DNA from: Loktanella atrilutea
GTDB taxonomy: Bacteria; Pseudomonadota; Alphaproteobacteria; Rhodobacterales; Rhodobacteraceae
Reading direction: 5' to 3'
NCBI RefSeq assembly: GCF_900128995.1
Contig: NZ_FQUE01000008.1
Location: forward strand, 62,001 to 126,000
DNA: 64,000 bases
The notes under the pieces are model-generated. The model was given only the letters and a program-made list of their open reading frames with translations, had not been told where the DNA came from and made no database searches. Position numbers and translations under genes: made by a program. Position 1 is the stretch's first letter. Every line of letters starts with the position of its first letter. Positions 3,742 through 17,793 of the stretch are shown one piece after another.

Positions 3742-4127
3742 ACATCGGAGAGGCCGCGCGGCGGTCGGAGCTGCCCCCCAAGACGATCCGCTATTACGAG
3801 GAGATCGGGCTCGTGACGCCGGCCCGCGATACCAACGGGTATCGCGCGTTCAGCGAAAGCGACGTGCACCGGCTGGTGTTCCTTGGCCGCGCGCGGGCGC
3901 TGGGTTTTACCATCGAGGACTGCCGCGCATTGATGGCGCTTTGGGCCGACAGCCAGCGGGCCAGTGCCGACGTGCGCCGCATCGCCACGGACCATCTGGC
4001 GCGGATCGAGGCCAAGATTGCCGACCTGCGCGCGATGCAGCACACCCTGTCGCATCTGGTGTCGGCCTGCGCCGGCGACGACAGGCCGGATTGTCCGATC
4101 CTGCAGACCCTCGAACATCCCGGGTGA
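3738..4127 (+). CDS. cueR: MerR-family copper-responsive regulator CueR
   Basis: 129 residues. The N-terminal MerR winged helix ([20 protein letters not shown]) is followed by a dimerisation helix and a C-terminal metal loop with two cysteines spaced C-x7-C (CAGDDRPDC), the CueR/HmrR signature for Cu(I)/Ag(I). It binds operators with long-spacer promoters, of which two lie upstream of copA and copZ. The start overlaps the copA stop by four bases. A much longer open frame that begins inside copA in another frame is an overlap artefact. Autoregulation through the copA promoter is inferred from the operon. Confidence 0.93.
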
Positions 4128-4814
4128 TTCGCGGAGCACCCACCGTCATTCCCATTGCTTAACAAAGCCTTAACGCAGCGCTCACGCGGGTGCGGTAATG
4201 TGTCCGCATCTTCACCGTTACGGGGTTGGATCGATGACACGCAAAGGTCGCCATATCCGCAATGATCCCGGCCGGTGGATGACGGGTGACGATGGCTTTC
4301 CCACGTCTTCGCAAGAACTTGCGACGACGGCCACGCGACCCGGACCCAGCGCCGCACGCCTGCCATTTGTCCCGGACGTGCGGCCCCTGACGAAGACCGA
4401 TGCAAAGCGCAGGCTCTCCTGTGGCCGTCCCGACCGCTTCGCCCTCCCACGGTCTTCGTCAGGCCCCGCTGCCACGGCCTCGTCCGGCACACCGCCGGGC
4501 GCCGCCATCCCGTCCGGTCCCGCATGTATTGTCATGCGCCTGCGCCGGGTGGTCCTGATCGTCGCCTACGGCGGGCGGTCCGGGACCGGTGCCCCGTGGG
4601 ACGACCCGTTCTGAGCAGTCGTCCGACACCTGCCATTTCAACCCACCTCTTTTCCGGAGGGACCCCTGTGATTTCGAATTCAGCAAGGCAAGAACACGGT
4701 CAGGGGCCCTTCACCTTTTCACGGGCGCGTGAATTTTCTTTCCTGATCCGCCGTAGGAAATTAGGCTGCGGGCGCGATCACGTGCGACCATATGCAATCA
4801 GGGGAGCCTTCAAC
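4128..4814 (+). other. 687-base stretch without a supported gene
   Basis: Open frames exist on both strands (for example 4198-4614 plus and 4218-4535 minus), but they overlap each other, have no recognisable domain and no convincing ribosome site. CTTAAC occurs twice near 4158-4172. A GTG at 4668 with GGAGGG upstream is in frame with the following regulator and could be an alternative start for it. The promoter of the large operon beginning at 4815 is presumably here, but no convincing -35/-10 pair was found. Confidence 0.5.
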
Positions 4815-6533
4815 GTGCCGCAGGCATGGCGTCCATCCGAGCGCGCGCCCGGCCCTCGGGCCCGGATCGCCCTTCTGGGGCCGTTCCGCCTGACCGATGC
4901 GGCCGGGCGCGACCGGACGCCGCGCAGCGCCCATCAGCAGGCGCTGCTCGCGGTGGTGGCCCTTGCGTCGGATGCCGGCGTCGCCCGGGCCCGGCTGATG
5001 GACCTGTTCTGGGGCGACAAGACCCCGCAGCTGGCGGCGCAAAGTCTGCGCACGGCGCTGCACGGCCTGCGGCGCGGTCTCGACACCCTCGGCGCGCCCT
5101 TGCTGGAGATCGACGCTCACCGGGTCCGGCTGGTGCCGGGCGCGGCCACCGTCGACCTGCTGGACCTCGCGGCGGGAGACGGCGGGTTGCCGGCGCATCT
5201 GCGTGCCGATCCGCCCGACGTGCTGGAAGGCGTGAACATCCCCGCCGAACCCTTCGAGGAGTGGCTGCGCGAGCAGCGGCAGCACTGGTACGACCGGATC
5301 GAGGCCCTGCGCGATGCCCCGGCGCCAGCCGTCACGGCCGTGCGCCCCGCGGCCCCCCCCGCTTTCGTCGAAGACCGCCCCATCGTGGGCCTGCTGGAGC
5401 CGGTGATCCATTCGCGGTCCTACCAGGCCCTCTTCCTCGGGGAAGCGCTGGTCGACCGTATCGCCTTCGGCCTGCGCGACTACGTCGGGGCGCGGACCTA
5501 TGACTATCGCGACCTGACGACCGGCCCCGACCACGAGGCGGTCACGCGCAGCAGCCCGTCGCTCTATCTGCGGCTGCGGCTTTACGAGGCGGACGGCGCC
5601 CTGTCGATCCGGATCCTCGTACTGCGGCACAGTGCGCAGGAACTGCTGTGGAGCGTGCAGGGCGGCCCCTACCGGCTGGACAGCGCCAGCATCGACAGCG
5701 CCGAGATCCTCGTGCTGCTGGGCGAGGCGATCGAGCGCGTGGCGATGACACTGGCCCGCGATGCCGGCAGCGATCCCGACGGGCCGCTGACGCCGTTCCA
5801 CGTGCTGACCGCGATGTTCCAGATCAACCACGCGTCCCTGTCCGACCTGCGCCGCGGCCTGCAGTCCAGTCGCGCGCTGACGCAGGACCCGGTCTATGCA
5901 GCGCTGCAGGCCTATCTGAATACCTTTCGCGTGGGCGAGCACTGGACCGCGCAGGATGCGCCGCTGGCAGAGGAGACCCGGGCGCTGGTCGCGCAGGTCG
6001 AGGATTCGCAGACCGGCGGCATCGCGCTGGCGCTGGCCGGCCATGCGACGGGTTACATCCTGCACGACCACGACCATGCGAACGCCCTGCTGGACCGCGC
6101 GATCCGCACCGCGCCGCATTCCGCGGTCTGCTGGGACCACATGGCCCTGCACCACATCTATAACGGGCGCTACGCCGATGCGCGCCGGGCGTCGCAGAAC
6201 GCCCTGCGGATCGGAGAGCACAGCCCGATCCGCTTCACCCTCGACCTGACGCGCTGCATGATCGCGACGCTCGAAGGCGACTTCGGCACCGCCAGCGCCC
6301 TCGGGCGGCGTATCCTGACGCGGCGGCCGAACTATGGCGCCGCGCTGCGCTATACCTCGGTCAGCCTTGCGCATCTGGGCGATACGGTGGGGGCGAAGGA
6401 TTGCATCCAGCGGATCCGGCGGATGGACCCCGACTTCTCTGTCGCCTGGGTCAACGAGGACCGGATGGCGGTGCGCGACGGTCAGGCCAAGGCGATCCTG
6501 ACCGAAGGTCTGATCATGGCAGGAGCGAAGTGA
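4815..6533 (+). CDS. SARP/BTAD-like transcriptional regulator with TPR-type C-terminus
   Basis: 572 residues from a GTG start with AGGGGAG 8 bases upstream. A second in-frame GTG at 4668 also has a good ribosome site, so the N-terminus is uncertain. Residues about 15-110 read as an OmpR-type winged helix plus activation region: ALLGPFRLTDAAGR, then AHQQALLAVVALAS, LFWGD and LRTALHGLRRGL, as in SARP/BTAD activators. The middle third (VGLLEPVIHSRSYQALFLGE) resembles the linker of adenylate-cyclase-like or CadC-like regulators. The C-terminus is helical and TPR-like. Its stop overlaps the next start as TGATG, so it leads and is coupled to the hydrolase/peroxidase operon, which it probably controls. 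No membrane helix is seen. Confidence 0.72.
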   Translation: MPQAWRPSERAPGPRARIALLGPFRLTDAAGRDRTPRSAHQQALLAVVALASDAGVARARLMDLFWGDKTPQLAAQSLRTALHGLRRGLDTLGAPLLEIDAHRVRLVPGAATVDLLDLAAGDGGLPAHLRADPPDVLEGVNIPAEPFEEWLREQRQHWYDRIEALRDAPAPAVTAVRPAAPPAFVEDRPIVGLLEPVIHSRSYQALFLGEALVDRIAFGLRDYVGARTYDYRDLTTGPDHEAVTRSSPSLYLRLRLYEADGALSIRILVLRHSAQELLWSVQGGPYRLDSASIDSAEILVLLGEAIERVAMTLARDAGSDPDGPLTPFHVLTAMFQINHASLSDLRRGLQSSRALTQDPVYAALQAYLNTFRVGEHWTAQDAPLAEETRALVAQVEDSQTGGIALALAGHATGYILHDHDHANALLDRAIRTAPHSAVCWDHMALHHIYNGRYADARRASQNALRIGEHSPIRFTLDLTRCMIATLEGDFGTASALGRRILTRRPNYGAALRYTSVSLAHLGDTVGAKDCIQRIRRMDPDFSVAWVNEDRMAVRDGQAKAILTEGLIMAGAK

Positions 6534-7432
6534 TGCCCGGCAATCCATTCAGCGCGATCCTGTCGCAGACCTGGCTGCTGGCGGTGGGCGACAGTTTCGA
6601 GGCCGTGCCGGTCGGCGCGCAGGGCGCACCTGCGGCGGCAGGCGTCTTCGACGCGGCGACCTTCGTGGCGACGCCGGCGGGCAGCGGTGGCGCATCCGGC
6701 CTGCTGAACCGGAACCGCAACAGGAACCGCAATCGCAACCGGAACCGCAACCGCACGACGACCGACCCCGTGGCCCCGGTGATGGGCGAGACGCCCGACA
6801 TCCTGCTGCCGTGGCGCGAGGTGGACCGGCTGCACCAGTTGCGCCCCTTCTGGGTCGACCTGCCGCTGCCCCTGCCCAAGGCGCCCGCCGGCCTGCTGGC
6901 CGAGACGGAGACCCTTTTGACCAAGCAGGCCGCCCTGCAGACCGAGGCCGAGGCGCCCCGCCGCGCCGAGATCCTGCGCGAGCAGGAGCTGGAACTGTCG
7001 GGCTACCTTCGCCCGCTGGGCGTGTCCAATGCGGGCAGCCATCCGCAGACGGTAACGCTGTTCCTGATCCTCGCCCGGCTGTGCGAGGAGATCGGCCTGC
7101 GTTACAAGGACCGCTACGACGCGCCGCGGCCCAGCACCATCAACCCGCGGCTGACGCCCTTCATTGCGGTGCCGGTGCATCCGTCATATCCGTCGAACCA
7201 CGCCTTCCTGAGCTACGCCATCGCCTTTGTCTTCGCCCGCGTGGCGCCGGAACATCCCGGTATCGCCGACCTGTTCCTGAGCGGGCGGCGCATCGCCGAG
7301 AACCGCGAGTGGGCGGGCGTGCATTATCCGCAGGACACGGCGGCGGGGCGGGCGCTGGCGCGGATGATGACCCCGGTCTTCGAGGTCGTGCTGGAAGAGC
7401 AGATGCTGGCCGCGCGGGAGGAATGGGTATGA
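6533..7432 (+). CDS. PAP2-superfamily phosphatase / vanadium haloperoxidase-like protein
   Basis: 299 residues. The three PAP2/haloperoxidase signature segments are present in order: KDRYDAPRP (R near 199), YPSNHAF (the PSGH motif with Asn for Gly, His near 223), and NREWAGVHYPQD (R-x5-H-x3-D, His near 264). The fold binds phosphate, or vanadate in haloperoxidases. Which one it uses cannot be told from sequence. There are no membrane helices, which favours the soluble haloperoxidase-like branch over lipid phosphatases. An eight-unit Asn-Arg repeat lies at residues 59-74. The gene is coupled on both sides (TGATG, then ATGA), so it belongs to the effector-like operon. Confidence 0.75.
   Translation: MPGNPFSAILSQTWLLAVGDSFEAVPVGAQGAPAAAGVFDAATFVATPAGSGGASGLLNRNRNRNRNRNRNRNRTTTDPVAPVMGETPDILLPWREVDRLHQLRPFWVDLPLPLPKAPAGLLAETETLLTKQAALQTEAEAPRRAEILREQELELSGYLRPLGVSNAGSHPQTVTLFLILARLCEEIGLRYKDRYDAPRPSTINPRLTPFIAVPVHPSYPSNHAFLSYAIAFVFARVAPEHPGIADLFLSGRRIAENREWAGVHYPQDTAAGRALARMMTPVFEVVLEEQMLAAREEWV
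6707..6754 (+). repeat. in-frame hexanucleotide repeat encoding (Asn-Arg)x8
   Basis: Eight consecutive six-base units of the form AAY-CGN/AGG encode alternating Asn and Arg at residues 59-74 of the PAP2-like protein. The codons vary (CGG, CGC, AGG; AAC, AAT), so the repeat is not a fresh perfect microsatellite. It separates a nondescript N-terminal segment from the enzyme domain and probably forms a basic flexible linker. Confidence 0.9.
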
Positions 7433-8934
7433 CCGGGCCGACCTTGAAGATCCCGAGCGACGGCGACCGCGGACGCGGCGACTATGCGGCCTACCATGCG
7501 CTGTGGCACCTGAAGGCAATCGGGGTGCTGGCGGACCTGCAGGACTTCGCGTCCGACGGCTGGGACGCCGCAGCGGCGCGGCTTGGACCACAGGTCCGGC
7601 GCACGCGCGTCGCCCTGATCGACGTGTCCGTCGCCGCGGGCCATCCGAACCTGAAGGATGCGGTGGACACCGATCTGGCGATCGACTTCTTCGCGGCCCG
7701 GCTGGGCATTCCCGCGACACCCGACGCCGTGGCGGCCCGCGTTGCCGGTCACGGCGACGCCCTGCCCGCCGATCTGCCGGCCACGGTCGGCCCGCTGTGG
7801 GCGGAACTGACGACGCACCTTGGCGGTGGCGCGGCCGACCCCCATGCCTCTGTCGTGCAGCCGGCGACAAGCCCGTCCTTTTCAGCCCACGGCACGGCGA
7901 TGGCGGGGCTGATCGGCGCGCGACCGGTGGCGCCGGACGCGATCGATGTGGCGCCCGTGCGGCTGTTCGATCCCGCCAGCGGCACCTTTTCCGACCTGCC
8001 GGCGGGCACGCCCACGGCCTTTGCCTATGCCGGCGTCGATCCCTTCTGCGAGATCGTGCCGATCTCTACCAACTTCGATCCGGAGCCGGAGCAGCTGATC
8101 CTGTCGCTGCTCTATGCCGCGCTGATCGGGGCGGATGTCATCGTGCTGGCCCGCGACTTTCCCAGCCCGGACAGCCTTGCCCCCGGTGTCGCCCCCACGG
8201 CAGAGGCGCTTGGTCGGGCCCTGCGGGTCGGATTGACGGAGGAGGAGATGACGCTTTGGTCCGCGCTGAAGGATCTGACGCTGGCGCTGTCGCGCCGGGT
8301 GCCCATCGTCTGTGCCGCGGGCAACGGCGCGCTGGACGGGGTGCTGTTCCCCGGCGCGCTGGCCGCACCGGACAACGGCATCATCGCCGTCGGCGCGCGC
8401 GCGGCCACCGGCCAGCCAGCCGCCTACACCCCTGTCGGGCCGGGCATCACCGTGCAGGCCCCCAGCGGAGACGGAGAGCGGCTGGACCGCGATCTGCAAC
8501 GCCTCGACACCCAAAGCGGGCGGTTCAATCCGCAGGACCAGTCGGCGGCCTATACCGCGGGCCTTGGCAACTACGGCGATCCGGCGTTCGCGGGTGTGCC
8601 CGCCGCGGGCACCCATGCGCCGCAGGACCTTGTCTCGACCGACGTGCCGGGGCGGGCGGGCTATAATTCCAGTCCGCACGCGCAGGTCTTCGGGCGCGAC
8701 GGTGCGGTGCTGGACTACCGCTCTGCCTTTTGCCGCTTTTCGGGCACCTCCGGCGCGACGGCGTTGACGGCGGGGCTTCTGTCGCTGGCGATCTCTGCCG
8801 GGCGGATCGCGCCGGGCGCCGCGGATTTCGGCGTCACCGCCAAGGCCGCGTTGCGCGGATCGGGCGCCGGGACCGCCGCCCCGCTGATCCACTGGTCGCA
8901 CTTTCCACCACCCCCGCCGGAGGAAACGCCATGA
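7429..8934 (+). CDS. subtilisin-like (S8) serine peptidase
   Basis: 501 residues. The catalytic triad can be placed at Asp65 (VALIDVSV), His154 (SAHGTAMAG) and Ser441 (FSGTSGATALTAGLL), with the oxyanion Asn299 in CAAGNGALDG. All are in S8 order, but the Asp-His gap and the stretch before Ser are longer than in classic subtilisins. The ATG at 7429 is chosen because GGGAGGA lies 6-7 bases upstream, and it overlaps the previous stop as ATGA. There is no signal peptide and no clear pro-domain, which is unusual for a subtilase and suggests action in the cytoplasm or export by another route. The C-terminus is proline-rich. Confidence 0.88.
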   Translation: MTGPTLKIPSDGDRGRGDYAAYHALWHLKAIGVLADLQDFASDGWDAAAARLGPQVRRTRVALIDVSVAAGHPNLKDAVDTDLAIDFFAARLGIPATPDAVAARVAGHGDALPADLPATVGPLWAELTTHLGGGAADPHASVVQPATSPSFSAHGTAMAGLIGARPVAPDAIDVAPVRLFDPASGTFSDLPAGTPTAFAYAGVDPFCEIVPISTNFDPEPEQLILSLLYAALIGADVIVLARDFPSPDSLAPGVAPTAEALGRALRVGLTEEEMTLWSALKDLTLALSRRVPIVCAAGNGALDGVLFPGALAAPDNGIIAVGARAATGQPAAYTPVGPGITVQAPSGDGERLDRDLQRLDTQSGRFNPQDQSAAYTAGLGNYGDPAFAGVPAAGTHAPQDLVSTDVPGRAGYNSSPHAQVFGRDGAVLDYRSAFCRFSGTSGATALTAGLLSLAISAGRIAPGAADFGVTAKAALRGSGAGTAAPLIHWSHFPPPPPEETP

Positions 8935-9635
8935 GCCTGCCATCCGACCTGCCGCGCGTGCGTGCCGTCACCGGGCCGCAGATCGTGCTCGCCCTCGCCG
9001 CGCTGGGGCTGGTCTATGGCGCGGGGCGGCTGCAGTTCGTCGCCCTGTCGCTGGCAGAGGTGTCGCTGACGCAGCTGGGGCAGCTGCTCGCCACCGCGGC
9101 CTTCGTCGCGCTGCTGATCGAACGGGCGGTGGAGCTGATCCTGAACTGGCGCTTCGGCCCGGCCGAGATCGCCATCGTCGCGCCGCTGAAGCAGGCCGCG
9201 GACCGCAATCATGCGCAGATGAAGATGCTGGCGCGCGACATGGACCTGCTGGTCAGCCCGCAGGACCGCATGACGCTGGTCGACGACGGGCTGCGCCACA
9301 GCGTGCTGAACGCCCGAGAGCTGCTGCCGGCGCAGGCCGCCGACACGCGCGGACGGCTGGAGGATCTGAGCCTGCTGAAGAAGAGCTGGGCGACCGTGTC
9401 TGCGATGACGCTGGGCATCGGGCTGAGCCTGTCCGGGTTTCAGCTGCTGCACGGCGCACTGGCGCCGCAGGTCGATCTTTCGGCGCTGCCGCCGCTGCAG
9501 GCGAACGTCTTTTCCTTCGTCGACATCTGCCTGACGTCGATCGTGCTGGCCGGGGGCGCCGACGGCATCCACCGGCTGATGACGCGGCTGATCGATTTCG
9601 GGAAAACCTCTCGGACGAGGATCATGCAGGACTGA
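8931..9635 (+). CDS. membrane protein of unknown function in the hydrolase/peroxidase operon
   Basis: 234 residues, not recognised. Two hydrophobic stretches lie near the N-terminus (IVLALAALGLVYGA and LLATAAFVALLIERAVELIL). A soluble, probably coiled central region follows (residues about 80-150, KQAADRNHAQMKML). Two more hydrophobic segments lie towards the C-terminus (SAMTLGIGLSLSGFQLL and DICLTSIVLAGGADGI). It is the only clearly membrane-embedded product of the locus and is coupled to the protease gene by ATGA. It might anchor the other products or act as a pore. Both ideas are inference. A gap of 198 bases separates it from the peroxidase gene. Confidence 0.6.
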   Translation: MSLPSDLPRVRAVTGPQIVLALAALGLVYGAGRLQFVALSLAEVSLTQLGQLLATAAFVALLIERAVELILNWRFGPAEIAIVAPLKQAADRNHAQMKMLARDMDLLVSPQDRMTLVDDGLRHSVLNARELLPAQAADTRGRLEDLSLLKKSWATVSAMTLGIGLSLSGFQLLHGALAPQVDLSALPPLQANVFSFVDICLTSIVLAGGADGIHRLMTRLIDFGKTSRTRIMQD

Positions 9636-9689
9636 CCTGCCCCATACCACGCGCAGTGAAAGGAGGAGCGCACCCCACGACAGACGACC

Positions 9690-9792
9690 CATTTTCAGAC
9701 CGGACGCCATTTTTTTCAGGCGTCGTTCCCATCCATTTTTCGCCGGATTACCGATTCACGCGCACCTTGCGTTTCCGACGGTTCATTTTCAG
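9690..9792 (+). promoter_or_regulatory. cluster of CATTTT-type repeats before the heme peroxidase gene
   Basis: CATTTTCAG occurs exactly at 9690-9698 and 9784-9792, with close variants starting at 9708 (CATTTTTTTCAG) and 9734 (CATTTTTCG). The variant at 9708 lies in a small dyad, GACGCC (9703-9708) and GGCGTC (9719-9724). The A/T-rich repeats stand out in a GC-rich setting and fill the only long gap in the operon, so a secondary promoter or binding site is plausible. No clear -35/-10 pair was identified. Confidence 0.4.
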
Positions 9793-9833
9793 CGTTTCAC
9801 GGCGCGCCCCGCATCCGGCTTCTTCAGGAGCCA

Positions 9834-11684
9834 ATGGCAATGCTTTACAAACTCGGTCACGGCCAGACCATCAAGGCCACCCCCACAGCCCGCGACGCCA
9901 CGGCGCGCGACGCCACGGCGCGCGACACGGACGGCGATGCCGTCGCCCTGCGCGACGTCGCCAGCATCGTGAAATCGCGGCAACTGGACGGAACGGACAC
10001 CTATCCGCTGCCCGACCCGGACCCCGCACCGGAACCGGGTCTGACCCCCCGGCAGGCGTTCCGCTACTATTGCAAGGATGCCCCGGCGGCGGAGGCGATC
10101 GAAGATGCGGCGACGTGGTTCGGCGCCCTTGCCGATGCGATGGCGGAAGAGGCACCCGACCAGAAGGACGCGGAGGGCGAATCCGCGATCCCGCCGGTCT
10201 TTACCTACATGGGGCAGTTCATCGACCACGACATCACCGCCAACACCGACCGCGAGGAGGCGCCGGGCGGTGACGCGGCGGCCTTCAACATCGACCGGCC
10301 GGATTTCGCGCCGGGATCGCGGGATCTGGCGGAGCAGGTCAAGCTGAACCTGCGGATCGGGCGTCTGGAACTGGACAGCGTCTATGGCGACGGGCCGGGG
10401 CAAAGCCCCGCCGCGCTGAAGCTGGAAGCCGCACTGCGCGATCCCGACGATCCAGCCAAGATGCGGCTGGGGGTGGTGACCCCCGTGTCCGGCCCCGGCA
10501 CCGGGTTCGAACGGCCGTCGCTGCCGGTGGACGACCACGCCGATCTGCCGCGGGTCGGTGCCGCGATCGACAGCGGCGACCTGACGCTGGAGGAGGTGAA
10601 CGCCCTGTTCAATCCCGACGGCACGAAGCCGGAGGCGGACGTGCGACGCACCGCGCTGATCGGGGACGGGCGCAACGACGAGAACCTGATCGTGGCGCAG
10701 TTCCACCTGAGCGTCCTGCGCCTGCACAACGCCATGGCCGACGCCTTGCGGGCGGACGGCATGACGGACGACGACGCGATCTTTCGCGCCGCACGCCAGC
10801 ACGTCACCCATGTCTACCAGTGGCTGGTGGTGAACGTCTTCCTGCGCAACGTCTGCGATCCGGCGGTGGTGGACCGGGTGCTGGCCGACCGCGCGCCGGT
10901 GTATGCGGCGTTCCATGCGGCCCACAAGGACGAGATGCCGGAGGGCGTGCAGCCGATGCCGCTGGAGTTCTCGGTCGCGGCCTATCGCTATGGCCATTCC
11001 ATGGTGCGCGGCGACTACGACTACAACCGCAACTTCGGACGGGCCCCGGACGGGACCGGCGACGGGCGGGCGACCTTCGATCAGATATTCCAGTTCACCG
11101 GCGACGGCGGCATGCGCGGCGCGCCGACGCTGCCCGACAACTGGATCATGGAGTGGGACCGCTTCATCGGCACCGCGCCCCTGCCCAACCGGGTCGCGCG
11201 GCGGATCGATACGCGGCTGGCGCTGCCGCTGAAGACCATGCGCAATGCTCCTCCGGGCCTGCTGGCGCATCTGGCGGCCCGCAACCTGCGGCGCGGCTAT
11301 GTCTTCAACCTGCCGACGGCGCAGGGGATGATCGACTGCCTTTACAAAAAGGGCATCGACATCGACGCCCTGACGCCCGCGGAGATCGCCCGCGGGTCGG
11401 AGGCGATGTCGGCCGCCATCACGGGTGGCGGTTTCGACCGGGCGACGCCGCTGTGGTTCTATGTGCTGAAAGAGGCGGAGGTGAAGGCGCAGGGCGCGCA
11501 TCTGGGGCCGCTCGGCAGCCGGATCGTGGCCGAGACGCTGATCGGCCTGCTGGTGACGGACCCGCAAAGCTACCTTAACCAAGGCAGCTTCGGCAGCTGG
11601 ACGCCGGCGGATGCGCCGCAGCCCGATGGCGCGCCGATCGACAGCCTGCAGGCCATGATGCGCGCCGGCGGCGTGCACGCCTGA
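9834..11684 (+). CDS. animal-type heme peroxidase (An_peroxidase family)
   Basis: 616 residues. The distal heme site GQFIDHDIT puts the distal His at residue 132 between Asp131 and Asp133; one of the two Asp may carry the covalent heme link. The conserved RNDENLIVAQFHLSVLRLHN follows, and the proximal His is at 388 in YRYGHSMVRGDYDYN. This is the peroxidase-cyclooxygenase superfamily, whose bacterial members oxidise halides or organic substrates. No signal peptide is present; the N-terminus instead has a short repeat (ARDATARDATARDT). CAGGAG precedes the ATG at 9834. Placed between two protease genes in one operon, it suggests an oxidative component of the same system. Confidence 0.9.
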   Translation: MAMLYKLGHGQTIKATPTARDATARDATARDTDGDAVALRDVASIVKSRQLDGTDTYPLPDPDPAPEPGLTPRQAFRYYCKDAPAAEAIEDAATWFGALADAMAEEAPDQKDAEGESAIPPVFTYMGQFIDHDITANTDREEAPGGDAAAFNIDRPDFAPGSRDLAEQVKLNLRIGRLELDSVYGDGPGQSPAALKLEAALRDPDDPAKMRLGVVTPVSGPGTGFERPSLPVDDHADLPRVGAAIDSGDLTLEEVNALFNPDGTKPEADVRRTALIGDGRNDENLIVAQFHLSVLRLHNAMADALRADGMTDDDAIFRAARQHVTHVYQWLVVNVFLRNVCDPAVVDRVLADRAPVYAAFHAAHKDEMPEGVQPMPLEFSVAAYRYGHSMVRGDYDYNRNFGRAPDGTGDGRATFDQIFQFTGDGGMRGAPTLPDNWIMEWDRFIGTAPLPNRVARRIDTRLALPLKTMRNAPPGLLAHLAARNLRRGYVFNLPTAQGMIDCLYKKGIDIDALTPAEIARGSEAMSAAITGGGFDRATPLWFYVLKEAEVKAQGAHLGPLGSRIVAETLIGLLVTDPQSYLNQGSFGSWTPADAPQPDGAPIDSLQAMMRAGGVHA

Positions 11685-11750
11685 CGCGGACCGGGGCCAT
11701 CCGCCGTCTGGCGGGTGGCCCCATCCCCTGTCCCGAACCGGAGAGGACCG

Positions 11751-13685
11751 ATGCCGGACCCGACCATCGCCACGGCCGTACTGCGGCCGGACCCCAGCGA
11801 CCTGCGCGACCGCGTCTATGCGCCGTCGCTGCGACCGCTGGCCCCGTCGTCCGAGCGCGCGCTGGCGAAGCGCATCTGTCCAAGGACGCGGGCGCTGCCC
11901 TACGAATTGCGCGATCAGGGTGCCGACGGCACCTGTGCCGGGCAGGCGCTGGCGAACCTGATCGACCTGCACCGGATCCGGGCCTGCGGCAACGGCAAGC
12001 GGCCCGAGAGGGTTTCGGCACGGATGCTTTACCAGATGGCAGTGCAGCAGGAGCGCGGGCCGGGCGGCGGCGGGCCCGAGGGCGTCACCTCGCTGCGGTC
12101 GGTGATCAAGGGGTTCTATCACAACGGGGTCTGCGCCGACACGCTTTGGCCGGACTGCGCGAGCGAGACGGCGCTGTCGGCGGAACGGGCCAAAGCGGCG
12201 CGGGCGACGACACTGGGGGCCTACTACCGGGTGCGGTCCTACCTCAACGACTATCACGCGGCGCTGTCCGATGCGGATTGCATCCTCGTCTCGGCGGCGA
12301 CGCATGGCGGGTGGCGGGCGGTGACGGACGGGGTGATCCCGCCCCACCCGCAGCCGGGCGAGAACCACGCCTTCGTCCTTGTGGGTTACAACGATCGCGG
12401 CTTCCTCGTGCTGAATTCATGGGGGCCGGACTGGGGCGGCTATGCCTGCGACGGGCAGGTTCTGCGGGGCGTGGCGCTCTGGCCCTATGCGGACTGGTCG
12501 GACAACGTGCTGGACGCCTGGGTGCTGCGGCTGGGCGTGCCCGCGCCGGAGGCCTTTGCCTTTTCCCAGTCGCGGCGCGGCATCTACTATGACGATGACG
12601 GCCCGATCCGGGCGGCGTCGTCGCCCTGTCACCAGTTGCTCGGGCACTTCGCGCATCTCGACGACGGGGTGCATGTGACGGGCGGCAGCTATGCCTCGTC
12701 CCGCGCGGCGGTGGCGCTGACGGCCGGGCGGATCGCGGCGAAGCCGGACCGCCCCGTGCACCTGTCGATCCCGGGATCGCTGCTGGGCATCGACGCGGCC
12801 TTCGGGGCAGAGGTGGCGCGGCGCCCGGCGCTGGAGGATGCGGGGCTTTATCCCTACACCCTGTTCTGGTGCAACGATGTGGTGGACAGCACGACGGCGG
12901 TGCTGGATCACCTGTTCCGCACCGCGGTCGACAAGGTCGGCGCGCTGAGCCCGGACCTGAACGCCGCGATCGAGGCGGCGACGGCGGGCATCGGGCGGGC
13001 GTTCTGGCGCGACATCGGGCGCGCGGCGCAGCGGGCCGGCTGCCATCGCCACGCCTGCGGCGCCGATCCGACCCGTGACGGGGATGCGGCGGATCTGCTC
13101 GACAGTCTTGCCGCGACCGGTGCGCCGCTGCACCTGAACGCCGACGGTGCGGGGGTGCTGCTGCTGGCGCAATACCTGCGGTCCCTGAACGCCCATGGCG
13201 GCGACCGGCGTAATGCCTTCGAGGGTGCGGTCGCGTCGCTGACGCTGATCGCGCCGGCGATCCGGCTGGACGACTTCTGCGCCGCCTTCCGCCCGCTGAT
13301 CAACGCGATCAACCGACGCGGGCCGGGGCGCGTCACCCTGTGGGTGCCGTCCTACGGGTTCGAGCGCAAGCTTGCGGTGGGGCACTACACGAGGTCGATC
13401 CTCGACCTGGTGCTGTATGCCTTCGAGGGAGAGCGCGACCGGATGCAGCATTTCATCGGCATGTCGGCCCGGCGCACCGGGCTGGCCGCCGAGACCGCAC
13501 CCGGCGGGCGGCTGGAGGGCGTCGTCCTGCGCAAGATGAAGACGCCGGACCACGCCCTGCAACCCGCCGAGGCGCGGCGCCGCCGCTACACCCAGCACGA
13601 TGTCATCACCCACGCCGAGACCGGGGCCGAGATCCTTTGGCACCTTGCCCGGCTCGTATCCCGCGACGCCATAGAGAAGCCATAG
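11751..13685 (+). CDS. papain-like (C1) cysteine peptidase fused to a hydrolase-like domain
   Basis: 644 residues. The N-terminal half has the C1 order Gln56/Cys62 (RDQGADGTCAGQ), His206 (ENHAFVLVGYND) and Asn222 (LNSWGPDWGG), so a complete papain-type site. The C-terminal half (about 270-620) has the texture of an alpha/beta hydrolase: a nucleophile-elbow-like segment HLNADGAGVLLLAQYL followed by LTLIAPAIRLDDF. The usual G-x-S-x-G Ser is replaced by Asp, so this half may be catalytically dead. GGAGAGGA precedes the ATG at 11751, which is preferred to an upstream in-frame start at 11715. No signal peptide is seen. The C-terminal assignment is inference. Confidence 0.78.
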   Translation: MPDPTIATAVLRPDPSDLRDRVYAPSLRPLAPSSERALAKRICPRTRALPYELRDQGADGTCAGQALANLIDLHRIRACGNGKRPERVSARMLYQMAVQQERGPGGGGPEGVTSLRSVIKGFYHNGVCADTLWPDCASETALSAERAKAARATTLGAYYRVRSYLNDYHAALSDADCILVSAATHGGWRAVTDGVIPPHPQPGENHAFVLVGYNDRGFLVLNSWGPDWGGYACDGQVLRGVALWPYADWSDNVLDAWVLRLGVPAPEAFAFSQSRRGIYYDDDGPIRAASSPCHQLLGHFAHLDDGVHVTGGSYASSRAAVALTAGRIAAKPDRPVHLSIPGSLLGIDAAFGAEVARRPALEDAGLYPYTLFWCNDVVDSTTAVLDHLFRTAVDKVGALSPDLNAAIEAATAGIGRAFWRDIGRAAQRAGCHRHACGADPTRDGDAADLLDSLAATGAPLHLNADGAGVLLLAQYLRSLNAHGGDRRNAFEGAVASLTLIAPAIRLDDFCAAFRPLINAINRRGPGRVTLWVPSYGFERKLAVGHYTRSILDLVLYAFEGERDRMQHFIGMSARRTGLAAETAPGGRLEGVVLRKMKTPDHALQPAEARRRRYTQHDVITHAETGAEILWHLARLVSRDAIEKP

Positions 13686-13689
13686 AGAA
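13668..13689 (+). repeat. 11-bp tandem duplication at a gene junction
   Basis: GCCATAGAGAA is present twice back to back (13668-13678, 13679-13689). The second copy contains the TAG stop of the C1 peptidase gene and contributes to the AAGGAG ribosome site of the following SGNH-metacaspase gene. A recent slip duplication would have changed the last residues of one protein and the spacing to the next. Confidence 0.85.
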
Positions 13690-13701
13690 GGAGACCAGAC
13701 T

Positions 13702-15522
13702 ATGACGGAAAAGATCACGCTGGAGGAACTGTCGCGCAAGATGGCCGACCCGGACACGGCGCCCGACGACCTTGCGGCCTATTTCACCGAGGACACCGGC
13801 GCGTCGGACCCCTTCGCGCCAGCCATCGCGCTGAACCCCGACAAGGTGGAAATTCCCGCCACGGCGGATGCGGCGACGCGGTCCGCCCTGCTGCTGAACG
13901 GCGCCAACTGGTTCGAACGGCAGAACCGGCAGGCGCGTTTCTTTCAGCGGCTGTCCAAGGGCGACTACAGGGGGCCGATCATCGTCGAGGAGGGCGACAG
14001 CTGGTTCCAGTACCCGATCCTGCTGCGCGACACGATCGATGTGCTGATGGAGGAATACGCCGTCTTTTCGCTGTCCGCAGGGGGCGACACGCTGGCGAAC
14101 ATGGTGGCGCGGGCCGAGTATCGCCGCGCGATCGAACAGACCGGCGCCACGATCCTGCTGCTGTCCGGAGGCGGCAACGACCTTGTCGCCGACGGCAACC
14201 TGTCGCGGCATCTGCGCCGCTTCGACGCCGGCCTGTCGGCGGCGGAATACCTGCTGCCCAGCTTCGACCAGCTTGTGGCGGTGGCGGTCCAGCAGTTCGA
14301 CCGGATCGCGCGGGACGTGGCGGCGCGCTATCCCAAGGTGAAAATCATCTGCCACGGCTATGACCGCGCCATCCCGGCCAAGGGCAAGTGGCTGGGCCTG
14401 CCGATGGCGGCCAACGGGATCGTGGACGCCACGCTGCAGGCGAGCATCGCCAAGGTGATGATGGACCGCTTCAACGACGCCATGATGGCGATGGCGCGGC
14501 GGCATGCCCATGTCTTCTTCCTTGACCTGCGCGGCACCGTCGGCGCCGGTCGCTGGCACGACGAGTTGCACCCGACCAATGCGGGCTATGCAGATGTCGC
14601 CGCCATTTTCTCTGCCCTGATCCGAAAGCTGACGAAGCCCGCCCGGGGGCCTGCCGTCCGGTCGGCACCGGCGGCGGTTGCGCTGCATGTGGGGCTGAAC
14701 CGTGTCGACCGGGGGCATTACGGGACTGGTCTGGTGGACCTCGACTTTTGCGTCAACGACAGCGAAGCGATGCGCGACATCGCCAAGGCGCGCGGGTTCG
14801 ATACCCAGACTCACCTGACCGACGCCGCAGCGACGCGCGACGCGGTGATCGCGGCCTGCGGCGAGGCGGCGAAGTCGCTGAAGGCCGGCGATACCTTCAA
14901 GCTGACCTATGCCGGGCACGGGGGTCAGGTGAAGGACTTCAACGGCGACGAGGCGACGGGACCGGACCGCGATCTGCTGGACGAGACGCTGTGCCTTTAC
15001 GACGGGCAGATGATCGACGACGAGCTTTACAAGATCTGGTCGGACTTTGCCGAAGGGGTGCGCGTGCTGGCGGTTTTCGACTGCTGCCACGCGGGCTCCA
15101 TGCTGCGGGCGGGACCGGGGCGGGCCGCCACGGCGGCCCCGGTCACGGGCAAGACCCGGATGATGACGCCGGGCGTGGCGGCGCAGGTCTTTCGCGCGAA
15201 CGAGGCGTTCTACCGTAGCCTGCCGTCATCGGCCCTCGGGCCGGACCTTGCGACGCCCTACCACGAGCTGAGCTTTCCCGTCGCGGCGAGCGTGTTGCAG
15301 CTGTCGGCCTGCCAGTCGAACCAGACCGCACAGGAGGATCTGGGCAACGGCCTCTTTACCGCGGCGATCCTTGCCACGCTGACCGATCCGGCGGCGCAAA
15401 GCGGCTATCGCAATTTCCGCGACCGCTGTGCCGCACGGATGCCCGCGTGGCAGTCGCCGAACTTCTGGACGGTCGGGCGCCCCGATGCCGCCTTCGAGGC
15501 CAGCCGCGTGTTCTGGGCATGA
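13702..15522 (+). CDS. SGNH-hydrolase / metacaspase-like (C14) fusion protein
   Basis: 606 residues. The first half is SGNH/GDSL-like: EEGDSWFQY (Ser100), SGGGNDLV (Asn159) and HDELHP (Asp287, His290), which fits lipase/esterase or acyl-group hydrolysis. The second half, from about 325, is caspase-like: ALHVGLNRVD, the catalytic His406 in YAGHGGQ and Cys462 in VFDCCHAGS, as in metacaspases and other C14 proteases. Both active sites look intact. There is no signal peptide. The stop overlaps the next start (ATGA). A caspase-family protease joined to a hydrolase fits a triggered effector, but activation and substrate are not visible in the sequence. Confidence 0.85.
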   Translation: MTEKITLEELSRKMADPDTAPDDLAAYFTEDTGASDPFAPAIALNPDKVEIPATADAATRSALLLNGANWFERQNRQARFFQRLSKGDYRGPIIVEEGDSWFQYPILLRDTIDVLMEEYAVFSLSAGGDTLANMVARAEYRRAIEQTGATILLLSGGGNDLVADGNLSRHLRRFDAGLSAAEYLLPSFDQLVAVAVQQFDRIARDVAARYPKVKIICHGYDRAIPAKGKWLGLPMAANGIVDATLQASIAKVMMDRFNDAMMAMARRHAHVFFLDLRGTVGAGRWHDELHPTNAGYADVAAIFSALIRKLTKPARGPAVRSAPAAVALHVGLNRVDRGHYGTGLVDLDFCVNDSEAMRDIAKARGFDTQTHLTDAAATRDAVIAACGEAAKSLKAGDTFKLTYAGHGGQVKDFNGDEATGPDRDLLDETLCLYDGQMIDDELYKIWSDFAEGVRVLAVFDCCHAGSMLRAGPGRAATAAPVTGKTRMMTPGVAAQVFRANEAFYRSLPSSALGPDLATPYHELSFPVAASVLQLSACQSNQTAQEDLGNGLFTAAILATLTDPAAQSGYRNFRDRCAARMPAWQSPNFWTVGRPDAAFEASRVFWA

Positions 15523-16208
15523 CCGGGCCGGTGACGATCCGCATGGTGCAGGCGGCGCTGGCGGCGCAGGGGTTCGATGCCGGCCCGGTGGACGGGGTGC
15601 GCGGGCGCCGGACCATCGCCGCACTGAAGGCCTTTCAGCGCGAGGCCGGGCTGGCGGCGACCGGACTGCTGGACAGATCCACGGCAGAGGCGCTGCTGGG
15701 CGCAGAGGCTGCCGCGGCCGTCCTGCCGGACGCGACGCCCTGGATGGACACCGCCGCACGCATGATGGGACTGCACGAAAGCCTCGACAACGCGGCGGTG
15801 GCGGCCTTTCTGGTCAGCGATGGCGGCACGGCGGGCGATCCCGCACAAGTGCCGTGGTGCGCCGACTTCGTGCAGACCTGCATCGCCCTGTCCCTGCCGG
15901 AAGAGCCGCTGCCGGTGAACCCCTATGCCTCGCTCGCCTGGGCCGGTTTCGGCAATCCGGTGGACCCGTGCTTCGGCGCGATCCTGTGTCTGTGGCGCGA
16001 AAGCCCCGACAGCTGGAAGGGTCACGTCGGCTTTTGCGTCGAGGTCCGGGCGGACCACGTGCTGCTGCGCGGCGGCAACCAGAGCGACGCGATCTGCGAG
16101 AAATGGATCGCGCTGCGGTTCCTGCGACCGGGGGGCAGTCGTTGGCCCCGGACCGCCCTGCCCCCGGTCGCGGTGTCGGGCGAACGCCGCAGCGTCAACT
16201 TGCGATGA
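15519..16208 (+). CDS. peptidoglycan-binding, NlpC/P60-like (TIGR02594-type) protein
   Basis: 229 residues. Residues about 5-60 form a PG_binding_1 repeat ([19 protein letters not shown], then [15 protein letters not shown]). The C-terminal domain has Cys114 in [10 protein letters not shown] and His169 in GHVGFCVE, matching TIGR02594-type cysteine hydrolases related to NlpC/P60 and CHAP amidases. The expected role is recognition and cleavage of cell-wall peptide. It lacks a signal peptide, so it would need lysis or a holin-like partner to reach the wall. It is the last gene of the plus-strand operon, and its end overlaps the convergent cysA gene by 14 bases. Confidence 0.8.
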
Positions 16209-16914
16209 ACGCCCTGACGAAGGCGTTTGCGGGGGCCTGACGGATTTCCTTCGGGCGGCCGATCTGTTCGATCCGGCCCATCGACATCACGACGACGAGG
16301 TCGGCGAGGGTCATCGCCTCTTCCTGATCGTGGGTCACGAAGATCGTGGTCAGGCCGGTCTGGTCGTGGATGTCGCGCAGGCCGGCGCGCAGATCCTTGC
16401 GCACCTGTGCGTCGAGCGCACCGAAGGGTTCGTCCAGCAAGAGCATCCGCGGATCGATCGCCAGCGCCCGTGCGAGGGCCACGCGCTGGCGCTGCCCCCC
16501 GGACAACTGGGCGGGGTAGCGCGCGCCGATGTCGGGCAGCTGGATCAGGCGCAGCAGGTCCGTCACCCGCTGGGCGATCGCCGCCGGCGCGGGGCGCGTC
16601 GCCCGCGGGCGGGCACGCAGGCCGTAGGCCACGTTCTCGAACACCGTCATGTGCCGGAACAGCGCGTAGCTTTGAAAGACGAAGCCCGCGCGCCGGTCCT
16701 GCACCGACAGGCGTCCGACGTCCTGCCCGTCGAACAGGATGCGACCGGCGGTGGGCTGTTCCAGCCCGCCAAGGATGCGCAGCAGCGTGGTCTTGCCCGA
16801 TCCGGACGGCCCCAGCAGGGCGACGAGCGCCCCCTGCGGGATCGACAGGCTGACCGGGTGCAGGGCGTTGGTGACGCCGAAGGTCTTGGCAATGGCCTCG
16901 ATGGAGATGTGCAT
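16195..16914 (-). CDS. cysA: sulfate/thiosulfate ABC transporter ATP-binding protein
   Basis: 239 residues. Walker A is GPSGSGKTT, the Q-loop FVFQSYALF, the ABC signature [15 protein letters not shown] and Walker [13 protein letters not shown], followed by the switch His in [14 protein letters not shown]. The D-loop and helical region are typical of CysA, but the C-terminal regulatory extension of the E. coli protein is absent. It powers sulfate import with the CysT/CysW permeases encoded upstream on the same strand. The gene closes the cys operon and runs into the convergent hydrolase operon with a 14-base overlap. Confidence 0.9.
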
Positions 16915-16926
16915 GGCGGGATCCTT

Positions 16927-17793
16927 TCAGGGCTGGCCGATAGCGGCGATCTGGTCCGCGTGCTGACGGTCCAGAAGCGATTTCAGGGCAAGGGTGACGA
17001 GCGCCAGCAGCGCCAGCACGGCAGCCAGCGTGAAGGCGGCCACGGACAGGTATTCGTTGTAGAGCATCTCGATCGTGATCGGCATGGTCGCGGTCTGGCC
17101 GCGAATCTTGCCGGACACGACGGCGACGGCGCCAAATTCGCCCATCGCGCGGGCGTTGCACAGCAGCACCCCGTAAAGCAGCGCCCAGCGGATGTTGGGC
17201 AGGGTCACGGTCCGGAAGGTGCGCCAGCCGGTGGCGCCCAAGGTCAGCGCCGCCTCCTCCTCTGCCCGGCCTTGTTCGATCATCAGGGGGATCAGCTCGC
17301 GCGCGACGAAGGGGAAGGTGATGAAAAGCGTCGCCAGCACGATGCCCGGCAGGGCAAAGACGACCGGGTGCCCCTGTGCCACCAGCCAGCCACCCAGGGT
17401 GGAATTGGCGCCGAAGAGCAGCACGATGCACAGACCCGCCACCACCGGAGAGACCGAGAATGGCAGGTCGATGAGTGTGATGAGAAGCGCCTTGCCGCGG
17501 AAGTCGAACTTGGTGATCGCCCAGGCGGCGGCGATGCCGAAGACCGCGTTCAGCGGCACGGCGATGGCGGCGACGGTCAGGGTCAACCGGATCGCCGAAC
17601 GCGCGTCCGGGTTGCCGAGGCTGGCGAGGGCGGCGGACCAGCCGTCGCGCAGCGCCTCGGCGAAGACCACGACGAGCGGCGCGATGACGAGGATCGCGAG
17701 GCCGGTGCAGGCCAGCGCGATCAGGGCAAGGCGCACCGGCAGGCGTTCCGAGGTTGCGGGTCCTGCCGCGGGATTGGCGGATGCGAAGGTCAT
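16927..17793 (-). CDS. cysW: sulfate ABC transporter permease CysW
   Basis: 288 residues with about six membrane helices and the permease EAA loop (EEEAALTLGATGWRTFRTVT). The GEFGAVAVVSGKI segment is characteristic of CysW. It forms the membrane channel with CysT. The start at 17793 overlaps the stop of the 80-residue membrane protein gene (ATGA). Twelve bases separate it from cysA. Assignment to CysW rather than CysT follows the gene order and the GEFGAVA variant. Confidence 0.9.
   Translation of the reverse strand: MTFASANPAAGPATSERLPVRLALIALACTGLAILVIAPLVVVFAEALRDGWSAALASLGNPDARSAIRLTLTVAAIAVPLNAVFGIAAAWAITKFDFRGKALLITLIDLPFSVSPVVAGLCIVLLFGANSTLGGWLVAQGHPVVFALPGIVLATLFITFPFVARELIPLMIEQGRAEEEAALTLGATGWRTFRTVTLPNIRWALLYGVLLCNARAMGEFGAVAVVSGKIRGQTATMPITIEMLYNEYLSVAAFTLAAVLALLALVTLALKSLLDRQHADQIAAIGQP

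What the first reader, a model, noticed from the sequence alone, without database searches (positions are those of the whole stretch)
4815..16208. Single-strand cassette of regulator, hydrolases, peroxidase, caspase and wall-directed protein
Eight genes follow each other on one strand, most joined by ATGA/TGATG overlaps: SARP/BTAD-like regulator, PAP2/haloperoxidase-like, S8 protease, membrane protein, heme peroxidase, papain-like protease, SGNH-metacaspase fusion and PG-binding NlpC/P60-like protein. Active-site residues of most enzymes are visible. None of the soluble proteins has a recognisable signal peptide, and there is only one membrane protein. A co-regulated set of unlike destructive activities in the cytoplasm suggests a conflict, abortive or controlled-lysis system, or cargo for a non-classical release route. 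I know of no described system with this composition.
Basis: partly seen in the sequence, partly recalled or inferred. Interest (0 to 1): 0.9.

Follow-up and report, generated by a model that had tools for sequence, protein, structure and literature searches.

The report
Modular caspase, papain and lipase operon
Eight neighbouring genes in an alphaproteobacterium join two recurring gene sets, one led by a gene switch and one built from a papain-like protease plus a lipase-type enzyme fused to a caspase, and they look more like a built-in way for the cell to burst than like ordinary metabolism.

Summary
In detail: eight same-strand genes, overlapping at 4 of 7 junctions, active sites in place. 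The whole set recurs in order in a Loktanella MAG (8 of 8) and on Palleronia plasmid pTHAF1_a (7 of 8). It is a composite of two separable operons. Block A, SARP-PAP2-S8(-TM), keeps its order without block B in 10 of 10 fetched same-family loci. Block B is peroxidase-C1-SGNH·caspase-CHAP; its core, C1 then SGNH·caspase, is on one strand in 42 of the 80 best C1 loci, diverges in step (r = 0.96) and is once a single 1,792-aa reading frame. In 44 of 44 caspase-paired C1 rows the alpha/beta-hydrolase serine is Gly or Ala; in the other 40 it is Ser in 39. Elsewhere the SGNH domain is joined to trypsin, amidase, M15 or NucA, or sits beside an EAD1-trypsin/STAND/trypsin-NucA locus, which ties it by domain content to Kaur's System 3 and to Caulobacter LypABC, needed for lysis. 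A three-heptamer, 11-bp-spaced SARP box precedes gene 1. Most likely a protease-gated self-lysis system (0.4); trigger and target are not shown. Sampled neighbours show no antiphage enrichment; the host lacks T6SS VipB. New variant of a known kind.

The parts
4158..4186 (+). SARP-type operator: three heptamers CTTAACA / CTTAACG / GCTCACG at 11-bp spacing
   Evidence: Leave-one-out matrix: 0 of 500 shuffles reach the score in window, L042, Palleronia and Aliiroseovarius; best-scoring site in the 64-kb window, but with a matrix that includes it. The single-sequence repeat test is not significant for the window.
4380..4469 (+). Long leader hairpin (33-nt arms, 76% complementary) between operator and gene 1
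   Evidence: Inverted repeat; a similar pairing seen by eye in the L042 leader (sequence). Role unknown.
   Evidence: AfsR/SARP model 1e-5, below its cut-off; AfsR structure 8hvr over residues 7-111 of the 4815 start, E=5e-4; TPR_19; start at GTG 4668 conserved with L042 and Palleronia
6533..7432 (+). g2: soluble PAP2-superfamily phosphatase/haloperoxidase-like protein; KX6RP, PSNH and NRX5HX3D visible
   Evidence: Pfam PAP2 2e-8; closest solved are acid phosphatases 7f17/7f18; motifs read by eye, names recalled
7429..8934 (+). g3: S8 subtilase, D65/H154/S441 intact
   Evidence: Pfam, invariant in 5 homologues
8931..9635 (+). g4: small membrane protein with three hydrophobic segments
   Evidence: Hydropathy; homologue in L042 (83%) and behind S8 in L149 and L151; no match in the Palleronia stretches fetched; no Pfam match
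9834..11684 (+). g5: animal-type heme peroxidase without signal peptide
   Evidence: Pfam An_peroxidase 2e-16; Q128/D131/H132, R280/E283, H388 and N484 invariant in 4 homologues
11751..13685 (+). g6: papain-like C1 protease fused to an alpha/beta-hydrolase-like domain whose nucleophile Ser is Gly
   Evidence: DUF900 alpha/beta hydrolase in relatives L103 (just over cut-off) and L083 (below it)
13702..15522 (+). g7: SGNH/GDSL hydrolase (about 1-310) fused to a C14 caspase (about 339-574)
   Evidence: Pfam, catalytic residues 43 of 43, model (mean pLDDT 70.5) and Foldseek
15519..16208 (+). g8: peptidoglycan-binding domain plus CHAP/TIGR02594-like amidohydrolase
   Evidence: homologues in L042 and Palleronia and a TIGR02594 gene before C1-SGNH·caspase on S. 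meliloti psymA

Best explanation
The cassette is two operons joined head to tail that together work as a switchable, protease-gated self-lysis system. Shown by sequence: a SARP-type regulator gene behind a three-heptamer operator; a subtilase, a papain-like protease and a caspase with complete active sites; a complete SGNH hydrolase in the same polypeptide as the caspase; a wall-binding CHAP-like protein; one small membrane protein; and co-inheritance of the papain protein with the SGNH·caspase. Inferred: when the SARP protein is activated it switches on its own operon. The papain/caspase (and perhaps subtilase) partners then cleave and release the SGNH hydrolase, which attacks membrane esters. 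With the membrane opened, also perhaps through g4, the CHAP-like protein (elsewhere a fused M15 or amidase domain) reaches and cuts the wall, and the cell lyses. The dead alpha/beta-hydrolase half of g6 is a docking or sensing part for the SGNH·caspase. Peroxidase and PAP2 are accessory killing or clearing activities. The trigger (stress, phage, gene transfer agent or density) is unknown.
For: C1 followed by SGNH·caspase on one strand in 42 of the 80 best C1 loci, mirrored divergence r=0.96, Mantel 0 of 999 on 41 rows after dropping L080 and L082, and one reading frame for C1-SGNH-caspase-M15 in Paracoccus lichenicola. SGNH relatives carry wall hydrolases, nuclease or other proteases; an M15 domain lies within 600 nt behind the caspase in 28 of 42. 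SGNH is fused to trypsin-NucA in L022 and L024 (Pfam; SGNH part by tblastn and phmmer) and sits beside trypsin-NucA, EAD1-trypsin and STAND-type genes in L023. A trypsin-endonuclease protein, LypC, is essential for Caulobacter lysis through its peptidase, and the downstream lytic effector there is unknown (PMC13236601; abstract, passages and Discussion read). Foldseek hits include GDSL esterases, PAF-acetylhydrolases and a phospholipase A1. No signal peptides by crude scan, and an operator.
Against: No direct evidence of lysis, of cleavage between the proteins, or of lipid as substrate. Linker K/R content is hardly raised (12.4% vs 11.0%). No STAND, EAD or NucA gene in the window cassette. The A block alone has no obvious lytic gene beside it. 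g4 has no match in the Palleronia stretches fetched, so it is unlikely to be an obligate pore. 30 of 80 C1 relatives show no SGNH gene nearby, though several of those records end close to the gene.
Confidence: 0.4

Rival explanations
1. Exported antibacterial set: the proteins leave the cell by a non-classical route (vesicles, lysis of a few cells, a T1SS) and act on competitors.
For: SGNH fusions with amidase, M15, NucA and proteases resemble antibacterial effectors; block A lies beside T1SS genes on an Aliiroseovarius plasmid; plasmid occurrence.
Against: No signal peptides by crude scan; T6SS sheath VipB in 10 of 31 searched SGNH-bearing genomes and not in the window's own genome; no immunity gene or trafficking domain recognised in the cassette.
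Confidence: 0.22
2. Antiphage abortive infection: same self-killing, but triggered by phage.
For: Caspase and trypsin-nuclease systems defend against phage (PMC12799240, abstract and section 8 read); EAD1 and STAND-type genes near one relative; YLATT gene beside an R. leguminosarum relative.
Against: PADLOC matches (1e-10) among sampled neighbours of SGNH-paired loci were Pycsar-cyclase models only, in 2 to 5 of 70 proteins (70 of 264 clusters given); for solo loci 69 families matched (70 of 215 clusters given), many of them generic kinase or helicase models. In the cassette itself only a caspase model matched (1e-10).
Confidence: 0.18
3. Peptide or natural-product pathway: SARP regulator, S8/C1/caspase as processing proteases, PAP2/peroxidase as tailoring oxidases.
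For: SARP lead; block A on Rhizobium plasmids is followed by a HEXXH putative peptide-modification gene, ThiF and, in L039, a 65-aa protein; BTAD, YcaO and TfuA genes upstream of a giant SGNH protein in Rhizobium TH2.
Against: No conserved small precursor found between the genes; the leader ORF shows no clear codon pattern; wall hydrolases and nuclease fused to SGNH do not fit.
Confidence: 0.1
4. Two functionally unrelated operons that are only neighbours.
For: Each occurs alone; in G051 and in Cereibacter johrii A and B lie on different contigs.
Against: Joined in the same order in L042 and Palleronia. Block A's S8 in 6 of 38 genomes with SGNH·caspase (39 of 42 loci given, L068 not held) versus 13 of 295 in the family and 0 of 24 given from the other 38 C1 loci; one genome, G700, is in both handle sets. 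Fisher p=0.013 for 6/38 vs 13/295, not corrected for relatedness (three of the six are Aliiroseovarius) and counting L042 itself.
Confidence: 0.15

Closest known systems
'System 3' multi-peptidase/NucA conflict systems (Kaur et al. 2020, PMC7159879; section 32 and found passages read)
   Same: Mostly alphaproteobacterial; several unlike peptidases incl. S8; wall-attacking parts; SGNH relatives L022-L025 carry the trypsin-NucA core
   Different: Window cassette has no trypsin, NucA, EAD1 or STAND; it has caspase, C1, SGNH, peroxidase, PAP2 and SARP. 'SGNH', 'lipase' and 'peroxidase' as word starts occur 0 times in that paper's main text
LypABC of Caulobacter crescentus (Banks et al. 2026, PMC13236601; abstract, found passages, Discussion read)
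   Same: Peptidase-driven lysis control in an alphaproteobacterium; trypsin-endonuclease LypC resembles the domain order of L023 and L025 proteins next to SGNH genes
   Different: No NLR/ATPase here; caspase/papain instead of trypsins; 'SGNH' has 0 hits there. Sequences were not compared with LypC itself
Canu caspase-nuclease (Tuck et al. 2025, PMC12799240; abstract and section 8 read)
   Same: Caspase-family protease in a multi-gene locus
   Different: Partner is an MBL-type pro-nuclease; no nuclease model in g1-g8
SARP regulators (AfsR)
   Same: wHTH match and 11-bp heptamer repeats
   Different: TPR C-terminus; no ATPase domain recognised
GSU0716 caspase-like protein (3bij)
   Same: Closest solved caspase sequence, E 2e-47, and Foldseek rank 1
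   Different: The 285-aa chain matches the caspase part of the profile only

Membership tests
Kaur System 3 | NucA-type endonuclease plus trypsin-like peptidase core | tested here: not met
   Neither in g1-g8; both in relatives L022-L025
Kaur System 3 | Several different peptidase families in one operon | tested here: met
   S8, C1, C14
Kaur System 3 | EAD1-bearing components in a subset | tested here: not met
   No EAD1 in g1-g8; EAD1 near L023
LypABC / CARD-NLR | NLR-like ATPase partner | tested here: not met
   No AAA/NACHT/STAND match in g1-g8
LypABC / CARD-NLR | Peptidase activity required for lysis | not testable with these tools
   Bench work
Canu | Caspase with MBL-fold pro-nuclease | tested here: not met
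   Caspase present, no nuclease model
C14 caspase-like (orthocaspase) | His-Cys dyad in p20 fold | tested here: met
   H and C in 43 of 43; Pfam C14
SGNH/GDSL hydrolase | Ser, Gly, Asn, His (and Asp) of the four blocks | tested here: met
   43 of 43 for each; Foldseek hits to GDSL enzymes
SARP regulator | N-terminal OmpR-type wHTH of SARP kind | tested here: met
   AfsR model (below its curated cut-off) and AfsR structure matches, weak
SARP regulator | Heptamer direct repeats spaced 11 bp before target promoter | tested here: met
   Leave-one-out 0 of 500 in four loci, heptamers first picked by eye; single-sequence test significant only in Palleronia
Phage holin-endolysin pair | Pore-forming holin with a wall hydrolase | tested here: inconclusive
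   g4 membrane-like, g8 wall-type; no g4 match in the Palleronia stretches
T6SS effector set | T6SS in the host | tested here: not met
   VipB not found in own genome, found in 10 of 31
Polymorphic toxin system | Trafficking domain and adjacent immunity gene | tested here: inconclusive
   None recognised; unknown families would be missed

The most novel reading that the evidence does not exclude
The SGNH hydrolase domain is the shared lytic effector of alphaproteobacterial programmed lysis: a membrane-ester hydrolase released by whichever protease it is fused to or encoded with (caspase with an inactive-hydrolase papain partner here; trypsin or trypsin-NucA elsewhere), and so a candidate for the unidentified effector downstream of LypABC-like hubs.
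Probability: 0.2. Interest if true: 0.85.

Novelty: new variant of a known kind. Interest (0 to 1): 0.6.

Why it matters
It would link bacterial caspases, papain-like proteases and a lipase-type hydrolase in one inherited killing unit, and offer a concrete candidate for how LypABC-like control hubs cause lysis, which Banks et al. (2026, Discussion) list as unknown. The loss of the alpha/beta-hydrolase nucleophile in all sampled caspase-paired C1 proteins gives a clean handle: it predicts that g6 binds, rather than hydrolyses, something in the SGNH·caspase pathway.

Tried and rejected
One indivisible eight-gene system: rejected, because the two halves occur apart. Defence island: not supported by sampled neighbours. 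T6SS cargo: rejected as a requirement. Phage origin: the C1 scan of viral contigs confirmed none, the SGNH scan 5 distant ones, the peroxidase scan 5 distant ones. g4 as a YLATT protein: no similarity. Small peptide in the 5' leader: an ORF at 4234-4614 has a counterpart in L042 but no clear codon-position signal (59, 67, 51 of 114 identical). Rfam over 3700-17000: one chance-level match. Cleavage-rich linker: not enriched. SBP plus multi-TM protein pair as a general sensor: both present in 3 of 50 paired and 0 of 30 solo loci, so not general. Single-sequence 11-bp repeat test weak except in Palleronia. Structure of g6: low confidence (mean pLDDT 58.4), papain half poorest; Foldseek's top hits are papain-fold proteases at E above 0.001, and I could assign none to the C-terminal half. 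Gene calls in relatives come from my own caller, which gave few or no genes for some loci (revised).
Full report
What is there. The window is part of a 4.2-Mb genome in 46 contigs. Gene calling, Pfam and NCBIfam confirm the eight genes, their order and their strand. Gene 1 probably starts at GTG 4668: the sequence GGAGRGACCCCTGTGATTT is kept in L042 and Palleronia. Residues taken as catalytic (recalled family knowledge) are conserved in homologues: C1 Q/C/H/N, peroxidase, S8 triad, SGNH and caspase. A crude hydropathy scan supports one membrane protein and no signal peptides; it is no substitute for a trained predictor.

Whole cassette elsewhere. L042, a Loktanella MAG contig, has all eight genes in order at 68-83% identity. 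Palleronia sp. THAF1 plasmid pTHAF1_a has seven in order at 57-75%, with no g4 match in the stretches fetched. A window protein 23 kb downstream is 87% identical in both the L042 genome and a same-genus genome, so L042 may be nearly congeneric and I count two clear lineages rather than three. In the family draw the g7 search matched 14 of 295 genomes including the window's own, five of them (own included) over both domains; the same-genus genome G006 had none. In a class-wide draw the SGNH domain matched 8 of 385.

Two blocks. Block A, SARP-PAP2-S8, keeps its order in 10 of 10 fetched loci (13 of 295 genomes matched; the own genome, G006 and G140 were not fetched), with a g4 homologue behind it in 2 of 10 and otherwise changing neighbours; one locus (L157) shows a weak peroxidase match on the other strand. 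Four of the 13 S8 matches carried one in-frame stop in the raw hit. Only the window's own genome matched in a class-wide draw of 385. On plasmids the S8 protein matched 71 records, 62 of them Rhizobium; in R. ruizarguesonis the block is followed by a HEXXH gene, ThiF and a 65-aa gene, and in Aliiroseovarius it lies near T1SS genes. Block B is peroxidase-C1-SGNH·caspase, with a CHAP/TIGR02594 gene in some.

Conservation of the block-B core. The genome-contig scan confirmed 419 relatives of C1 and kept the best 80. In 42 of 80 an SGNH·caspase gene follows on the same strand; in 5 an SGNH-trypsin gene and a peroxidase precede; in 3 an SGNH gene without caspase precedes; 30 show no SGNH gene within range, some of them because the record ends nearby. 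A peroxidase match lies in 8 of 80 and a CHAP match in 3 of 80, one of these a solo locus. Many of the 80 are close kin (eleven are titled Aliiroseovarius), so counts are not independent events. On a tree of 84 rows each of the three SGNH contexts needs one change and the solo label two; support for the caspase group as one side of a branch is weak (13). C1 and SGNH·caspase distances correlate at r=0.96 (41 rows; L080 and L082 dropped; Mantel 0 of 999). In Paracoccus lichenicola (L082) C1, SGNH, caspase and M15 share one 1,792-aa reading frame, a single case.

A lost nucleophile. The second half of C1 is alpha/beta-hydrolase-like: DUF900 scores just above its cut-off in L103 and below it in L083. 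At the nucleophile, all 44 caspase-paired rows have Gly (42) or Ala (2); all 7 trypsin-paired rows (two of them, L029 and L110, the same sequence) and all 3 other paired rows have Ser; 29 of 30 solo rows have Ser and one (L093) Leu. The papain residues stay in all rows except L080, whose record starts inside the gene so that Q and C are not covered. This is probably one event, so it is a marker of the caspase branch, not repeated convergence.

What the SGNH partner keeps company with. Across relatives the SGNH domain is joined to caspase; caspase+M15; Amidase_3+M15; Amidase_3+M74+S8; Trypsin+Endonuclease_NS; Trypsin+Exo_endo_phos; or Trypsin. In L023 an SGNH gene neighbours a trypsin-NucA gene, an EAD1-trypsin gene, an EAD1 gene and a STAND-like gene; L025 has trypsin-NucA, trypsin and LuxR-type genes. 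Other SGNH loci contain chitosanase, L,D-transpeptidase and C25 peptidase (Rhizobium), or GH19, amidase, M74 and a di-heme cytochrome c peroxidase (Geminocystis). On a Pseudomonas aeruginosa plasmid a distant SGNH gene has no such partners in the stretch shown. The common theme is degradation with interchangeable parts.

Regulation. Three heptamers at 11-bp spacing precede the regulator gene in the window, L042, Palleronia and Aliiroseovarius. With a matrix built from the other three, none of 500 shuffles reaches the observed score in any of the four; R. gallicum 0 of 500, R. ruizarguesonis 13 of 500. The heptamers were picked by eye before the test and the first three loci are kin; without the matrix only Palleronia is significant by itself. 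The site is the best in the 64-kb window (19.3; the next non-overlapping one 9.2), with a matrix that includes it. The simple scan of 3700-16400 found no sigma-70 promoter and terminator-like sites at chance level.

Mechanism. Shown: composition, order, conserved active sites, co-inheritance, operator motif. Inferred: SARP switches the operon on; the papain/caspase pair activates the SGNH hydrolase; membrane then wall are attacked; the cell lyses. The strongest outside support is LypABC of Caulobacter, in which a trypsin-endonuclease protein is essential for lysis through its peptidase while the lytic effector is unknown (PMC13236601; abstract, passages and Discussion read), together with domain-level resemblance of L023 and L025 proteins to LypC. 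I did not compare sequences with LypC itself. Kaur et al. describe the trypsin-NucA core and propose proteolytic activation for System 3, mostly found in alphaproteobacteria (PMC7159879, section 32 read).

Results against. Sampled neighbours of SGNH-paired loci matched only Pycsar-cyclase PADLOC models (2 to 5 of 70), whereas the solo controls matched 69 families (70 proteins each, from 264 and 215 clusters), so no defence-island signal. Block A's S8 was found in 6 of 38 SGNH·caspase genomes (39 of 42 loci given; L068 not held), against 0 of 24 genomes given for other C1 loci and 13 of 295 in the family: a modest excess, with related genomes and L042 itself included and one genome (G700) in both handle sets. 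Linkers are not enriched in K/R. The g6 model is poor in its papain half. The listings of my searches for published descriptions showed none of this composition; the library holds open-access papers only, and I opened four papers.

Verdict. The interpretation as controlled lysis is the best reading at moderate confidence. The system is a new variant within multi-peptidase killing or lysis cassettes of alphaproteobacteria, assembled from two separable operons.

Noticed in passing
window 6706-6755: AACCGC hexanucleotide repeat (about 8 copies) encodes an Asn-Arg run in the PAP2 protein; length could vary between strains.
   Followed up: no
window 9883-9926: 15-nt repeat near the start of the peroxidase gene.
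   Followed up: no
window 4380-4469: Long inverted repeat in the roughly 480-nt leader between SARP operator and gene 1, with similar pairing by eye in L042; possible attenuator.
   Followed up: partly
L032 5296-8156; L126 3229-5858; L129 4261-7212; L026 11510-14289; L072; L079; L082 6444-9479: A multi-TM protein and a periplasmic substrate-binding-like protein recur beside some SGNH loci and are one fused ORF in L082; a possible envelope sensor.
   Followed up: partly
L037 8055-13010: 1,651-aa SGNH-Amidase_3-M74-S8 protein downstream of BTAD, YcaO and TfuA genes on Rhizobium sp. TH2 plasmid.
   Followed up: no
L124 4012-7026: Trypsin-Exo_endo_phos-SGNH protein in Mesorhizobium.
   Followed up: no
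L039 9757-12493: Block A in Rhizobium is followed by a HEXXH putative peptide-modification protein, ThiF and a 65-aa protein, a possible peptide-modification locus.
   Followed up: partly
L033 4002-6047: Caspase-FGE-sulfatase fusion upstream of the S. meliloti TIGR02594-C1-SGNH·caspase genes.
   Followed up: no
window 29630-29849: Cluster of 15-36-nt tandem repeats inside the 853-aa minus-strand ORF at 29115-31676.
   Followed up: no
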